In this document: piece by piece, positions 392-29,878 of the stretch
How the letters are laid out: each line of letters begins with the position of its first letter
Position numbering within the stretch: position 1 is the stretch's first letter
From: Methanoregula sp.
GTDB taxonomy: Archaea; Halobacteriota; Methanomicrobia; Methanomicrobiales; Methanospirillaceae
NCBI GenBank assembly: GCA_026394655.1
Contig: JAPKXU010000058.1
Coordinates: 1-36,583, forward strand
DNA: 36,583 nt
Direction: 5' to 3'
Notes under the pieces: model-generated
Database searches by the model: none
Seen by the model: only the letters and a program-made list of their open reading frames with translations
Told to the model about the DNA's origin: nothing
Made by a program: the position numbers and the translations under genes

Positions 392-802
392 ATGAAACTC
401 AGCCATATCCTTGCCGGCATTCTTGTGCTTGTGATCTGTGTCTTTATCTACGACTCTGCCGGCGCGTTGTATTCCCAGAGCGTTGACCTCGCGAATGCGG
501 GAAAATATTCTGCGGCATTGAAGGCAGCTGATCAGGCTCTGGCACTGAACGCAAGTTCGCTCAACCCTATTATCCAGGCAAACCGTGCTGGTATCCTTGT
601 GATGCTAGGAAGGAACGAGGATGCGATCACAGCGGCTGATGCAGCACTCGGGGCGCAGGGCAACCTGACTACAACATACTCTATTGCGTACTTCAACAAG
701 GGTAACGCACTCCGGAACCTTGGCAGGACCGATGAAGCGAAGGCAGCCTATACAAAAGCTGCCGAACTCGACCCAACGCTCGTAAACCCGTACAAAACCT
801 GA
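392..802 (+). CDS. TPR-repeat protein with N-terminal membrane anchor/signal
   Basis: 136-aa ORF with a hydrophobic N-terminus (ILAGILVLVICVFIY) and TPR-like helices (AYFNKGNALRNLGRTDEAKAAYTKAAELDP). TATA-like gatttaaaattc lies upstream. Confidence 0.8.
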   Translation: MKLSHILAGILVLVICVFIYDSAGALYSQSVDLANAGKYSAALKAADQALALNASSLNPIIQANRAGILVMLGRNEDAITAADAALGAQGNLTTTYSIAYFNKGNALRNLGRTDEAKAAYTKAAELDPTLVNPYKT

Positions 803-1076
803 TGTTCCTGTTGAGTTCCCCCAACCCCCGCACGTTTTTAATGAAAACTGGCATGCCGGTTTCACGGGATTTGGGTGTGTGAATGGTTTGGGCATAATGT
901 AAGATTTTTATCATTGTTTTTTGTCATTGCTATTCCGCACGATCGTGTGGAAGGGACCGTTACCGTTGATTAGAACCGGCTTTTTGTGATCTAACATATC
1001 CGCGATTTCAGAAACCGGGAGAATACTATTATATAATAATCGTATCGCTATATCCACTGTTAAGAGGTAAAGTCAT

Positions 1077-2888
1077 ATGTCCGTGGCAAAGTGTATTCCG
1101 TTATGTGTTGCAGGAATTCTCCTCATCACCTGCATGACACCCCCAGTCTCTGCCTGGTCCAACCAGATATTCGCCCCGTTTGTGGATGTAGGGTCATACC
1201 CGACCCTTGCACTTGACAATATATCCGATACAACCGGCGTGCAGTTCTTTACTCTTGCCTTTATCATTGCGGACCAGTCAGGGAATCCCTCGTGGGATGG
1301 TGTAATCCCGGTCGGTGACCGCCCCTATCTCAATGAAGTGAACCGGATCCGGGCTAAAGGAGGGAATGTCCTTGTCTCGTTCGGAGGAGCTTCCGGGACC
1401 GAACTTGCCGTTGTAGTCCCCGATGCAACTACACTCCAGGCACGATACCAGTCGGTGATTGACACGTATAACGCAACGTGGATAGATTTTGATATCGAAG
1501 GAGGAGCATGTGCAGACCTCCTCTCAATCGACCGCAGGAATAAGGCGATTGCCGGGCTCGAGGTTGTAAATCCAAACCTTCGTGTCAGTTATACCCTGCC
1601 CGTTGAGACGGATGGGCTGACAGAGAATGGACTTAACATCCTCCGGAATGCGAAGGCAAACGGAGCCCGTGTCGATATCGTGAATGTCATGACCATGGAC
1701 TTCGGCTCCTATTATGCACCGGATCCGGAAGGCAGAATGGGAGAGTATGCAATCCAGTCAGCAGAGAGCCTGAAAGGACAACTGCTGGCGCTGTACCCGG
1801 ATAAATCTGCTGGCAGCATCTACGCGATGATTGGCATCACTCCCATGATTGGACAGAACGATGTCAAAGCAGAGGTTTTCCGGCTCATTGATGCGGAAAA
1901 GATTCTTGAGTATGCCAGGAGCAAAGGCATCGGGTTCATCGCCATGTGGTCTCTTGGGAGGGACAATGGATCCGGTGGGAACAATCCTTGGGCATCACCG
2001 ACATTCAGTGGGATCGTCCAGGAACCGTTTGCATTCTCCCGCATATTTGGCAACTTTGCCTTGTCCCAGCCGGTAGTCACTCCTACGCCGGTTATCACTG
2101 TTACACCGGTAGTCACACCCAACCCGGCTCCCACGGTCATCCCGACGGTAACGCCATCGCCCGTTCCCACGCAGACGGTCACCCCGCCCGAATGGTCCGC
2201 GGACACGATTTACCTCCGCGGAGACCAGGTAATGTACCATCTGTCATGCTATATTGCACAGTGGTGGACAAAGAACGATGTCCCCGGAAAGTCGATGGTC
2301 TGGAAGCTGGTTGGTAGTGGTATTCCTGTACCAACCGCATGGGAACCGGCAGTGGCATACACAGCTGGAGAACAGGTAATCTGGAACGGGTCGGTCTATG
2401 ATGCCAAGTGGTGGACGCAGGGGGATGTGCCGGGTACCGCCAGCGTCTGGAAACTGGTGAGCACGGGTATTGCAACCCCTACCCCAACCCCGACCAGCCC
2501 GGTGCCTACACCCACCATCACGGTCACCCTGACAGTTACGCCAACAGCCATCCTGACACCCACTATCACCTCTTCACCGGTTCCAACACAACCGGGCACT
2601 CCGGCTGAATGGTCCACCGATACCGTGTATCTTGGCGGAGACCAGGTTATGTACCATGGATCAGGCTACACTGCACAATGGTGGACAAAGAACGACGTCC
2701 CTGGAAAGTCGACGGTCTGGAAAGTGGTCGTTACAGGAGTTCCCATACCAACCGCGTGGGAACCGGCAGTAGCATACATAGCGGGAGAACAGGTAATCTG
2801 GAACGGGTCGGTCTATGATGCCAAGTGGTGGACGCAGGGGGATGTGCCGGGTTCTGCCAGCGTCTGGAAACTGGTTACCGGGAGATAA
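1077..2888 (+). CDS. Secreted GH18 chitinase-like protein with four C-terminal CBM5/12-like chitin-binding modules
   Basis: Signal peptide; GH18 DxxDxDxE-type motif (TWIDFDIEGG); Pro/Thr-rich linkers; four modules of the form W..xxxY..GdqVxyxgxxYxAxWWTxxdvPG..sVWKlV. Confidence 0.88.
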   Translation: MSVAKCIPLCVAGILLITCMTPPVSAWSNQIFAPFVDVGSYPTLALDNISDTTGVQFFTLAFIIADQSGNPSWDGVIPVGDRPYLNEVNRIRAKGGNVLVSFGGASGTELAVVVPDATTLQARYQSVIDTYNATWIDFDIEGGACADLLSIDRRNKAIAGLEVVNPNLRVSYTLPVETDGLTENGLNILRNAKANGARVDIVNVMTMDFGSYYAPDPEGRMGEYAIQSAESLKGQLLALYPDKSAGSIYAMIGITPMIGQNDVKAEVFRLIDAEKILEYARSKGIGFIAMWSLGRDNGSGGNNPWASPTFSGIVQEPFAFSRIFGNFALSQPVVTPTPVITVTPVVTPNPAPTVIPTVTPSPVPTQTVTPPEWSADTIYLRGDQVMYHLSCYIAQWWTKNDVPGKSMVWKLVGSGIPVPTAWEPAVAYTAGEQVIWNGSVYDAKWWTQGDVPGTASVWKLVSTGIATPTPTPTSPVPTPTITVTLTVTPTAILTPTITSSPVPTQPGTPAEWSTDTVYLGGDQVMYHGSGYTAQWWTKNDVPGKSTVWKVVVTGVPIPTAWEPAVAYIAGEQVIWNGSVYDAKWWTQGDVPGSASVWKLVTGR

Positions 2889-3021
2889 AGTAACCTTGAA
2901 CAGATGAAACCCCTTGTAGGTCCGCATCTTTTTTTTTATAATCACTCATTGACACGTTTTCAGTCATACGATCCCGCCCTCACCTCAATATTGATGTGAA
3001 GAACCCACCCATCATCTAATC

Positions 3022-4176
3022 ATGCGGAGCATCGCAGTTGCTGTCGTTACTGGCATCCTGCTCATTGCCATCGTCTTCTGCACCGGGTGCATCGTCGCAA
3101 AGAATCCTTTTTCGGCGTCCCCGCCAACAACCACGCCGGCACCTTCCCCCACCCTCTCCTTATCTCCATCCCCATCTCCCGCAATGGTGCCGGTAACGGA
3201 GTCAACACTATCAGCACCGGTGGCGAATCAAGCACTCGCGAGTAGCATGGGCATTGACACCCTCCACGTCTACCAGGATCTGAATGTCCCGCAGACAGGC
3301 ACGAACAAAACCGTCACCCGCACGTTCGATTTCGTGTACCGGGAAGATAACTATTCATTTGAAGTTCCGGTCGACACCTCGCTCTACACTGCGGCACAAA
3401 CCTCCCCAAATAAACAACTCACGTTCACCAGCAGCGAACAGGGCGAGTTCTACCGGCAGATGATGACCGATCCTGCGATGGATGCATTCTACACCGATCT
3501 TGTAAAAGAACTCAGGCGCGAACGCTATAACAAAGGGCTGAACCTTACTGACGATGAGTATCTCGAGATGCTCATCTCGTTTGTACAGCAGATCAAGTAT
3601 GACAACACAACGAGCGGCAACCCACGGTATCCTGTAGAAGTGATCTACGACAAGATGGGCGACTGCGATGAGAAAGCCATTCTTTTAAATGGCATCCTCT
3701 CCCGCGAAGGATACGATGTCGCACTTCTTGTCTTTCCGACAATGAAACACGCGACGAGCGGAATCCGCATTCACCTCCCGACAAACAAACCCTCGTTCCG
3801 GGTGTTCTCGGATGGCCAACGGGATTACGTGTACATCGAGACAACCCGCACGCGGCTCATCGGGTTTTATAGTGACGAGTATGAAACCGTACCGGAACCG
3901 CTTGTGGTACCCGTCGGGAACGGCACACTCCATTACGGGAAGATCAATTATGTCATGACAATATTTGCTGATGTAAAAGCGATCGAGCGGCAACTCAGGA
4001 TCCTTGAAGCGAAAGCAGGACCTTCACGCACGCTATCACAGGATGATTACAACGCGGCAATGTCATATATCAAAACGTATAATTTTGTGGGAAATACCAA
4101 TGACCGGGAAGCCGCGATGATGACAATCCGGAACAGCGAGTTGCGCCACAATTCGGTCTGTCTCTCATGCGGGTAA
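3022..4176 (+). CDS. Transglutaminase-like lipoprotein
   Basis: Lipobox-like VFCTGC followed by a Ser/Pro/Thr-rich linker; transglutaminase-like core with GDCDEKAILLNGILSREGYDVALLVFP and a downstream H (KHATSGIRIHLP). Confidence 0.7.
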   Translation: MRSIAVAVVTGILLIAIVFCTGCIVAKNPFSASPPTTTPAPSPTLSLSPSPSPAMVPVTESTLSAPVANQALASSMGIDTLHVYQDLNVPQTGTNKTVTRTFDFVYREDNYSFEVPVDTSLYTAAQTSPNKQLTFTSSEQGEFYRQMMTDPAMDAFYTDLVKELRRERYNKGLNLTDDEYLEMLISFVQQIKYDNTTSGNPRYPVEVIYDKMGDCDEKAILLNGILSREGYDVALLVFPTMKHATSGIRIHLPTNKPSFRVFSDGQRDYVYIETTRTRLIGFYSDEYETVPEPLVVPVGNGTLHYGKINYVMTIFADVKAIERQLRILEAKAGPSRTLSQDDYNAAMSYIKTYNFVGNTNDREAAMMTIRNSELRHNSVCLSCG

Positions 4177-8517: not shown

Positions 8518-9072
8518 TTACATAATGCTTTCGAGTTTCTGCTCCAAAAAGTCCAGTCCTTTCTTGATATCTTCAAGATTCTTTCCACCCGTCAGGATGA
8601 TCTTACCGGATGAGAAGAGGAGCGCGACGATCTTCGGGTCCTTGATCCGGTAGACGAGTCCCGGAAACTGTTCGGGTTCGTACTCGATATTCTCAAGGTT
8701 GAGAGTGACGACGACTTTGTTTAAATTGATGTATTTGCCGATATCATACGAGCAGACGATGTTGGTGATTGCAACGCGGGGCGTCTTGAGTACGTCCACA
8801 CCCGCTTCTTTAAGAGATTTGATGATGATTGCAAGTCCGTCTTTTAACGCCTTGTCGTCACGGATGCCGGTCAGGACGACCTTTCCTGAAGAGAAGATCA
8901 AAGACGCGATCTTCGGGTTCTCGATCCGGTAAACCGCGCCGGGGAACCGTTTCGTGTTGAGTTCGCAGCTCTTGATCTTGGATGAGACCATGTTGAGATC
9001 AATAGACTCTGCGATGACGCCGGATGCAACGACATTCTCAATCTTTAATGAAGCATACTTCTTATCAGCCAT
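8518..9072 (-). CDS. tbp: TATA-box-binding protein (paralog 1)
   Basis: Two imperfect repeats containing FPGAVYRIENPKIASLIFSSGKVVLTG and FPGLVYRIKDPKIVALLFSSGKIILTG. Confidence 0.95.
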   Translation of the reverse strand: MADKKYASLKIENVVASGVIAESIDLNMVSSKIKSCELNTKRFPGAVYRIENPKIASLIFSSGKVVLTGIRDDKALKDGLAIIIKSLKEAGVDVLKTPRVAITNIVCSYDIGKYINLNKVVVTLNLENIEYEPEQFPGLVYRIKDPKIVALLFSSGKIILTGGKNLEDIKKGLDFLEQKLESIM

Positions 9073-23179: not shown

Positions 23180-24004
23180 TCATTTTTCTTTTGAAAACTC
23201 CCGTTTGACTTCACCATAATAAAGCCGGTATAATTCGTCAGCATAACTTCCCAGCTTTGGAATGATCGAAAAGAGTCCAAACGCGATGACAACAAGGATG
23301 ATAAGGGCGACCAGTTCAGCAATGACATTGTGCGCCCAGAAGAAGCTCTCGTACCCGATCTCGCCATTACTGGCAATCTCCGGCATATAGGGGAACAGCT
23401 GTTCGGTGTAGGAGATAATCACAAAGACGTTCCTGAACAAATTCAGGATATAGATCGTTGGGGCGACGGCAAGAAACGCGAATATCTTCTGGCGTGTAGT
23501 TGTCGGCACTGCCGCGGCGACGCCGAGAAGGATGGCGATGCTCTGGATACCCGTGCATGCAAGGATAATCTCAACCCGGAACCCGTGTCGGGTGATGATG
23601 TTCCAGTCCGCAAGGGAGACCGGGTAATGGAAAACGCCAAGCAGCCAGACAACTTGTGCGACAACGATATCGATGAGCCAGTTACCCAGCACCGGGATGT
23701 ATTCAAAGGGAGCGTAGATCAAAAATGCCACTGCTGCCGCCCGCGAGAGGTTCATCACGCGGAGATCTTCGATGAGCAGGTACTTGATCGTAATATACAA
23801 AAACGGCACGGAAAGGACTGCTATTACCGGGTAGAGGAAGTTATTGATGGAGAAATAGTAAGGCAGTTCCGCAAAGAGGAAAAGAACGATAAAAATCCAG
23901 CCGATAATAGCCGCGTACTTTCTATGACGACCGGGAATGAGAAATGCCAGAAATCCGAGACAGGAGATCAGCACCAGATACTCGATCATTATAGACTTAT
24001 CCAC
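23180..24004 (-). CDS. artA: Archaeosortase (exosortase-family transpeptidase, ArtA-like)
   Basis: Polytopic membrane protein with Cys (ACTGIQS), Arg (LNLFRNVFV) and His (FFWAHNV) motifs in the exosortase/archaeosortase order. Confidence 0.87.
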   Translation of the reverse strand: MDKSIMIEYLVLISCLGFLAFLIPGRHRKYAAIIGWIFIVLFLFAELPYYFSINNFLYPVIAVLSVPFLYITIKYLLIEDLRVMNLSRAAAVAFLIYAPFEYIPVLGNWLIDIVVAQVVWLLGVFHYPVSLADWNIITRHGFRVEIILACTGIQSIAILLGVAAAVPTTTRQKIFAFLAVAPTIYILNLFRNVFVIISYTEQLFPYMPEIASNGEIGYESFFWAHNVIAELVALIILVVIAFGLFSIIPKLGSYADELYRLYYGEVKREFSKEK

Positions 24005-29292: not shown

Positions 29293-29314
29293 CTGTTTTG
29301 TGGTACTTATAAAT

Positions 29315-29878
29315 ATGAAGGTCAGACCAGAGGACTCCCTCAAAATTGAAAATATCGTTGCCTCAGCGAAGGTTTGCGATTATCTGGATCTCCCCGACAT
29401 TTCTTCACGGATTAAGGATGCTGAATATGACAAGAAGCGTTTCCCGGGTGTTGTTCTCAGGATGCAGAATCCTAAGATTGCAGCTCTGGTCTTTGGTTCC
29501 GGCAAAGTCGTGCTTACCGGTGCAAAGAGTGTCAGCAGCCTCTCCAAGGGATTGAATATCCTTGGCGACATGCTCCGCAGTTTTGGCATCGATATCCCGA
29601 AAAATCTGACCTACAAGATACAGAATATTGTCACATCTGCTGATCTCGCCACTCCCATTAACTTAAACAAAATTGCGGTCGGTTTCAATCTTGACCGTAT
29701 TGAATATGAGCCGGAACAGTTCCCGGGTCTTGTCTACCGGCTGGAAGATCCAAAAGTGGTTGTCCTCCTCTTTGGCTCCGGCAAACTGATCATCACCGGT
29801 GGCAAAGAACCTGAAGACGCAAAAAAAGCGGTTATTAAAATTCTTGCTGACCTTAAGCATCTTGGATTAATGCAATAA
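29315..29878 (+). CDS. tbp: TATA-box-binding protein (paralog 2)
   Basis: Direct repeats FPGVVLRMQNPKIAALVFGSGKVVLTG and FPGLVYRLEDPKVVVLLFGSGKLIITG. Confidence 0.95.
   Translation: MKVRPEDSLKIENIVASAKVCDYLDLPDISSRIKDAEYDKKRFPGVVLRMQNPKIAALVFGSGKVVLTGAKSVSSLSKGLNILGDMLRSFGIDIPKNLTYKIQNIVTSADLATPINLNKIAVGFNLDRIEYEPEQFPGLVYRLEDPKVVVLLFGSGKLIITGGKEPEDAKKAVIKILADLKHLGLMQ

What the first reader, a model, noticed from the sequence alone, without database searches (positions are those of the whole stretch)
1077..2888. Secreted multi-modular chitinase-like enzyme in a methanogen
The protein has a signal peptide, a GH18 catalytic motif (WIDFDIEGG) and four CBM5/12-like modules on Pro/Thr linkers. Methanogens are not expected to hydrolyze chitin, so this suggests horizontal acquisition, attachment to chitinous or GlcNAc-containing surfaces, or attack on other cells.
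Basis: partly seen in the sequence, partly recalled or inferred. Interest (0 to 1): 0.6.

Follow-up and report, generated by a model that had tools for sequence, protein, structure and literature searches.

The report
Secreted chitinase in a methane-making archaeon
A wetland-type methane-producing archaeon (genus Methanoregula) carries one intact, secreted chitin-cutting enzyme with four chitin-binding modules although the standard genes for feeding on the released sugar were not found in it, so it probably helps or anchors to chitin-feeding neighbours rather than eating chitin itself; the enzyme is of a known kind, its owner is the unusual part.

Summary
Window 1077-2888(+) encodes a 603-aa protein: Sec-type leader, a GH18 catalytic domain with an intact DxDxE motif (D137, D139, E141), and two Pro/Thr-linked pairs of CBM5/12 modules. 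Pfam's GH18 model scores just under its cut-off (29.2 vs 29.6 bits), but membership is clear: AlphaFold pLDDT 94.7, TM 0.94 to Streptomyces venezuelae chitinase 1 and 0.90 to Pyrococcus furiosus chitinase domain 2. The host genus is almost certainly Methanoregula: two complete genus-mates have the M. boonei and M. formicica chromosome lengths, and mcrA is in 28 of 39 genus genomes (not found in this 82%-complete bin). The gene occurs in 3 of 39 genus and 9 of 232 order genomes. Here it is a single-gene insert at a locus that lacks it in eight relatives; M. boonei keeps one stray CBM. GH20, GH35 and NagB were found in none of the chitinase-bearing methanogens tested; PIG-L deacetylase is absent from the Methanoregula ones. 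Best reading: a patchily gained and lost extracellular chitinase that releases chitooligosaccharides for neighbouring fermenters and/or anchors to chitin. The enzyme is known; the physiology is open. New member of a known kind.

The parts
1029..1036 (+). TATA-box-like element TTATATAA about 40 bp before the start codon
   Evidence: read by eye from the sequence; not tested
1064..1068 (+). Shine-Dalgarno-like GAGGT
   Evidence: read by eye from the sequence
1077..2888 (+). secreted GH18-(CBM5/12)4 chitinase gene, 603 aa
1077..1154 (+). Sec-type signal peptide, residues 1-26 (ends PPVSA, then W27)
   Evidence: hydropathy scan; no transmembrane-length stretch near the C-terminus
1155..2057 (+). 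GH18 catalytic domain, residues 27-327
   Evidence: 9buf E=1e-70; 2dsk E=7e-49; pLDDT 94.7; TM 0.94 / 0.90
1485..1499 (+). catalytic motif D137-F-D139-I-E141 (DxDxE); E141 = general acid by homology
   Evidence: invariant in 40 homologues; aligned with 2dsk/3a4w
2067..2189 (+). Pro/Thr-rich linker 1
   Evidence: translation
2190..2303 (+). CBM5/12 module 1
   Evidence: PF02839 over cut-off
2337..2453 (+). CBM5/12 module 2
   Evidence: PF02839 over cut-off
2466..2603 (+). Pro/Thr-rich linker 2
   Evidence: translation
2607..2723 (+). CBM5/12 module 3 (copy of module 1)
   Evidence: PF02839 over cut-off; 86% DNA identity of pair 1-2 to pair 3-4
2754..2870 (+). CBM5/12 module 4 (copy of module 2)
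   Evidence: PF02839 over cut-off
2929..2937 (+). run of nine T after the stop codon, archaeal-terminator-like; gene looks monocistronic
   Evidence: read by eye from the sequence
392..802 (+). left border of the insert: small TPR-repeat protein conserved at this place in genus-mates
3022..4176 (+). right border: exported protein with a weak transglutaminase-core match; directly after the TPR gene, without chitinase, in three relatives
   Evidence: (PF01841 E=0.08, below cut-off)

Best explanation
An intact, exported GH18 chitinase held by a few Methanoregula species as a single-gene, patchily gained and lost accessory trait. Shown: gene intact, catalytic residues present, chitinase fold, four chitin-binding-type modules, purifying selection, insert at a locus that lacks it in relatives, and no match in the carriers to GH20, GH35 or NagB. 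Inferred: the enzyme leaves the cell, binds chitin through its CBM pairs, and cuts it by the GH18 substrate-assisted retaining mechanism (E141 as acid, the substrate's N-acetyl group as nucleophile, D139 positioning it) to short chitooligosaccharides. Inferred further: the methanogen cannot use these by a recognised route, so the gain is indirect. Neighbouring fermenters take up the sugars and give back H2, formate and acetate, which Methanoregulaceae use; the CBMs may also keep the enzyme or cell at the chitin particle. I give about 0.85 to 'active secreted chitinase' and about 0.5 to the indirect cross-feeding or attachment benefit.
For: Domain and fold. dN/dS (NG86) about 0.16 against G193 and G195, 0.11 between those two (dS saturated). 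Presence 3/39 genus, 9/232 order, 14/394 phylum sample. Carriers G193 and G195 are near-finished genomes (1-2 contigs), so not a binning artefact. Empty site: TPR followed by the OB-nuclease/phosphoesterase/helicase block without chitinase in eight Methanoregula genomes, including G193 and G195 whose chitinases lie elsewhere. No GH20, NagB or GH35 in ten genomes tested, eight of them carriers; no PIG-L deacetylase in the three Methanoregula carriers. Literature: related P. furiosus PF1233 / T. kodakarensis domain B is an endochitinase (PMC3575233); about 60% of chitin breakdown in anoxic lake sediment was attributed to the methanogenic network (PMC6715849); Methanoregulaceae made up 44% of mcrA reads in a fen where N-acetylglucosamine breakdown was studied, and cultured members need acetate (PMC11670324).
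Against: No activity, secretion or expression data. The own bin is 82% complete, so absence of downstream genes is firm only through its near-complete relatives. Thermococcal-type glucosamine deaminase (a SIS-domain protein) cannot be told from GlmS by family and was not tested; an unrecognised uptake route remains possible. Secreted public goods also benefit non-producers, so the benefit is not obvious without attachment.
Confidence: 0.68

Rival explanations
1. Direct nutrition: the methanogen takes up chitooligosaccharides or GlcNAc itself, for carbon and nitrogen assimilation rather than energy.
For: A chitinase under purifying selection; chitin is an amino-sugar source; Thermococcales use a related enzyme with a deacetylase/glucosaminidase route and an engineered P. 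furiosus grows on chitin (PMC3575233). PIG-L family members do occur in G116 and G121.
Against: No GH20, GH35 or NagB in any carrier tested, no PIG-L in Methanoregula carriers; no sugar catabolism genes recognised beside any of the three Methanoregula copies.
Confidence: 0.15
2. Mainly an adhesin: the CBM pairs fix the enzyme or cell to chitinous particles, fungi or arthropod remains, and catalysis is secondary.
For: Four to six CBM modules multiplied as pairs; no sugar-use pathway.
Against: All catalytic residues kept and the catalytic domain is under purifying selection; no membrane anchor or sorting tail was seen at the C-terminus of the window protein, so it would hold the enzyme, not clearly the cell.
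Confidence: 0.15
3. Attack on other cells (lysis of fungal or bacterial walls).
For: GH18 enzymes act on GlcNAc polymers; fungal walls contain chitin (established knowledge).
Against: Closest characterised relatives are chitinases; no lysin, toxin or secretion genes recognised beside the gene.
Confidence: 0.04
4. Contaminating contig in a metagenome bin, i.e. not a methanogen gene.
For: The bin is draft, 322 contigs, and mcrA was not found in it.
Against: The same contig carries archaeal TBP genes and archaeosortase A and is syntenic with complete Methanoregula genomes right beside the chitinase; two near-finished genus-mates carry their own copies.
Confidence: 0.02

Closest known systems
Chitinase 1 of Streptomyces venezuelae, GH18 domain (PDB 9buf, molecule name Exochitinase 1)
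   Same: Catalytic domain 42% identical, TM 0.94 over the whole domain, DxDxE motif.
   Different: Bacterial; only the hydrolase domain is in the entry; its accessory modules were not compared here.
Pyrococcus furiosus PF1233 / Thermococcus kodakarensis ChiA catalytic domain B (PDB 2dsk, 3a4w)
   Same: Archaeal GH18 of the same subgroup, TM 0.90, same catalytic Glu, also joined to chitin-binding domains (PMC3575233).
   Different: Hyperthermophilic heterotrophs with chitinolytic pathway genes near by (PMC3512248); the methanogen has one catalytic domain, CBM5/12 pairs and no such pathway found.
Haloarchaeal GH18 chitinases (L065-L068, L072-L074 here; Halobacterium ChiN1 is the studied kind)
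   Same: GH18 of the same group with a CBM5/12-like module by eye.
   Different: The module lies before the catalytic domain with PKD-like stretches between (by eye); some haloarchaea grow on chitin (PMC4569967); separate clade.
Clostridial chitinases of Ruminiclostridium cellobioparum and Clostridiaceae ES-bin-163 (L001-L003)
   Same: Nearest non-methanogen catalytic domains, 52-54% identity, in the sister group in the tree.
   Different: Larger open frames with the GH18 domain far from the N-terminus; bacterial owners.
Tandem-GH18 and dockerin-bearing chitinases of other Methanomicrobiales (genomes G111, G112, G116, G120, G121)
   Same: Same order of methanogens, same GH18 group; the tandem type also has four CBM5/12.
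   Different: Two catalytic domains, or one with a dockerin-type tail; the copies of the order are not one clade.

Membership tests
Glycoside hydrolase family 18 | sequence homology to GH18 catalytic domain | tested here: met
   phmmer to GH18 chitinase structures E 1e-70 to 7e-49; PF00704 E 9.7e-7, just below curated cut-off
Glycoside hydrolase family 18 | (beta/alpha)8 barrel | tested here: met
   AlphaFold pLDDT 94.7; TM 0.94/0.90 to solved GH18 barrels
Glycoside hydrolase family 18 | DxDxE motif with catalytic Glu | tested here: met
   D137-x-D139-x-E141, invariant in 40 homologues, aligned with the Glu mutated in 3a4w
Glycoside hydrolase family 18 | retaining hydrolysis of beta-1,4-GlcNAc polymers | not testable with these tools
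   needs enzyme assay
Carbohydrate-binding module family 5/12 | PF02839 match above cut-off | tested here: met
   four modules over cut-off
Carbohydrate-binding module family 5/12 | chitin binding | not testable with these tools
   needs pull-down with purified modules
Thermococcales-type chitinolytic pathway (ChiA, Dac, GlmA, GlmD) | deacetylase and exo-glucosaminidase present with chitinase | tested here: not met
   no PIG-L in Methanoregula carriers, no GH35 in any carrier tested; GlmD not testable by family
Bacterial-type chitin catabolism (GH20, NagB) | GH20 hexosaminidase and NagB deaminase present | tested here: not met
   absent in ten genomes, eight of them carriers; controls positive
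Methanogen (host) | mcrA present | tested here: inconclusive
   not found in the own 82%-complete bin; present in 28/39 genomes of the genus, including both other carriers

The most novel reading that the evidence does not exclude
A hydrogenotrophic methanogen that secretes a polymer-degrading enzyme it cannot live from, so as to make neighbouring fermenters release H2, formate and acetate: a methanogen acting at the hydrolysis step of anaerobic chitin breakdown instead of only at its end.
Probability: 0.3. Interest if true: 0.65.

Novelty: new member of a known kind. Interest (0 to 1): 0.4.

Why it matters
Polymer hydrolysis in anoxic wetlands is usually assigned to bacteria and fungi, and methanogens to the last step. 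A set of Methanomicrobiales with intact, selected, exported chitinases and none of the standard sugar-catabolism genes tested would blur that division and gives a directly testable case, since carriers include near-finished genomes, some of what look like cultured species. It also shows a practical gap: this GH18 subgroup scores below, or out of reach of, Pfam's GH18 model, so profile surveys undercount it in archaea.

Tried and rejected
1) PF00704 search of the own genome gave no hit at 1e-3, which would have refuted GH18; not taken as refutation because the single-protein scan, PDB search and fold agree. 2) Idea that the insertion had cut off the C-terminal tail of the TPR gene: dropped, because the relatives in L125, L128, L129 and L130 naturally end at the same place. 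3) Synteny of the three Methanoregula chitinase loci: none between the window and the others; G193 and G195 share neighbourhood genes in rearranged order. 4) Phage origin: no match in 50,697 phage records. 7) Literature for a methanogen chitinase: none found in the held library; only Thermococcales and haloarchaea are named as archaeal holders in PMC3512248. Absence from that library is not proof of novelty.

Full report
WHAT IS THERE. The ORF at 1077-2888(+) encodes 603 residues. Its N-terminus is a hydrophobic leader that ends in VSA just before W27. A TATA-like TTATATAA, a GAGGT ribosome site and a nine-T run after the stop are visible (by eye), so the gene looks like a single transcription unit. 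Residues 27-327 are a GH18 catalytic domain. Pfam's model is just under its cut-off (29.2 against 29.6 bits), and a whole-genome search with that model reported nothing. The PDB search finds two chitinases across the whole domain, 9buf at E=1.2e-70 and 2dsk at 7e-49. The AlphaFold model, from 40 homologues, has pLDDT 94.7 and pTM 0.93. Its best matches are 9buf, described as the hydrolase domain of chitinase 1 of Streptomyces venezuelae (TM 0.94, rmsd 1.4 A), and the P. furiosus chitinase domain 2 (TM 0.90). D137, D139 and E141 are invariant. The rest of the protein is two Pro/Thr linkers and four CBM5/12 modules, which are two copies of one pair, 86% identical in DNA. G193 has four modules and G195 six, so the pairs keep being multiplied.

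WHO CARRIES IT. The own genome is a draft of 2.26 Mb, 322 contigs, 82% complete. Two complete genomes of its genus are 2,542,943 and 2,820,858 bp long; from my own knowledge these are Methanoregula boonei 6A8 and M. formicica SMSP, and 2.8 Mb for the latter agrees with PMC4155587. mcrA is missing in the own bin but present in 28 of 39 genus genomes, including both other chitinase carriers. A related catalytic domain is found in 3 of 39 genus genomes and 9 of 232 order genomes, and in 14 of 394 sampled genomes of the phylum; the carriers outside the order look haloarchaeal by protein make-up and architecture. Among the other carriers, G112 has a contig of 2,843,290 bp, which I recall as Methanoplanus (Methanolacinia) petrolearius. 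These searches used one protein as query, so the counts are lower bounds.

HOW IT GOT THERE. In eight Methanoregula genomes the TPR gene is followed by the OB-nuclease, phosphoesterase and helicase block with no chitinase; in G186, G187 and G188 the transglutaminase-like gene stands directly after the TPR gene. In the window the chitinase stands between the TPR gene and the palindromic TCAATATTGA element that precedes the transglutaminase-like gene there and in relatives. In G193 and G195 that locus is empty and the chitinase is elsewhere. M. boonei keeps one CBM5/12 module, up to 75% identical to those of G195, in a 66-residue open frame with no GH18 within the 12 kb fetched. So the trait is being moved and lost within the genus. 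In the tree the three Methanoregula domains form one clade (100/98), next to clostridial domains plus the Methanoplanus-like copies (92/88), with the tandem Methanolacinia-type copies apart. One clade for all Methanomicrobiales copies is rejected in the full set (AU p=0.00036) and after removing long branches (p=0.00009). Uniting Methanoregula with the tandem type is not rejected (p=0.36). So transfer between bacteria and methanogens happened at least once, but donor and direction for the Methanoregula copies are open. The bacterial sample came from one pattern-based scan and is biased to close relatives of the query.

WHAT IT LIKELY DOES. dN/dS near 0.16 and 0.11 shows selection on the catalytic domain (dS is saturated, so the ratio is rough). 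Chitin catabolism genes were not found: GH20, NagB and GH35 in none of ten genomes, eight of them carriers; a PIG-L deacetylase in none of the three Methanoregula carriers. This argues that the products are not used by the usual routes. Known context fits an indirect benefit: chitin in anoxic freshwater sediment is broken down largely through the methanogenic network (PMC6715849), and Methanoregulaceae are abundant in a fen where GlcNAc fermentation was followed, use H2 or formate (M. boonei not formate) and need acetate (PMC11670324). The mechanism I commit to is an exported, CBM-tethered chitinase feeding nearby fermenters. Steps shown: gene, fold, residues, selection, insert, missing pathway genes. 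Steps inferred: secretion, activity, substrate, benefit.

VERDICT. Observation confirmed; interpretation partly supported. The enzyme is an ordinary GH18-CBM5/12 chitinase; an intact one in a hydrogenotrophic methanogen that lacks the tested sugar-use genes is unusual and, as far as the held library shows, not described.

Noticed in passing
L111 6239-6373 (-) = G158:C1 about 1464239-1464372: M. boonei genome holds a lone CBM5/12 module in a 66-residue open frame, up to 75% identical to G195 chitinase modules, no GH18 nearby: probable relic of a lost chitinase.
   Followed up: partly
L059, L061 (and L058, L060): Methanoplanus-like methanogen chitinases end in a dockerin type I domain (over cut-off in L059, just under in L061), with a cohesin-like stretch before it by eye: possible cellulosome-like parts in a methanogen.
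   Followed up: partly
L043/L058 (G121) and L046/L063 (G113): One GH18 copy in each genome has an in-frame TAA, so these copies may be decaying or carry a sequencing error.
   Followed up: no
L057, L062, L064: Methanolacinia-type chitinases have two GH18 domains in tandem plus four CBM5/12 modules, about 970-990 aa.
   Followed up: yes
window 23180-24004 (-): Archaeosortase A (TIGR04125, 301 bits); the chitinase has no matching C-terminal sorting tail by eye.
   Followed up: partly
window 8518-9072 (-) and 29300-29878 (+): Two different TATA-binding protein genes in one 36-kb window.
   Followed up: no
window 2985-2994: Palindrome TCAATATTGA in front of the transglutaminase-like gene, conserved in G186 and G188 and seen in the G184 and G187 sequences: likely operator or promoter element.
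   Followed up: partly
PF00704 model against window 1077-2888, L055, L059: This GH18 subgroup scores below Pfam's cut-off or not at all, so profile surveys of archaea miss it.
   Followed up: yes
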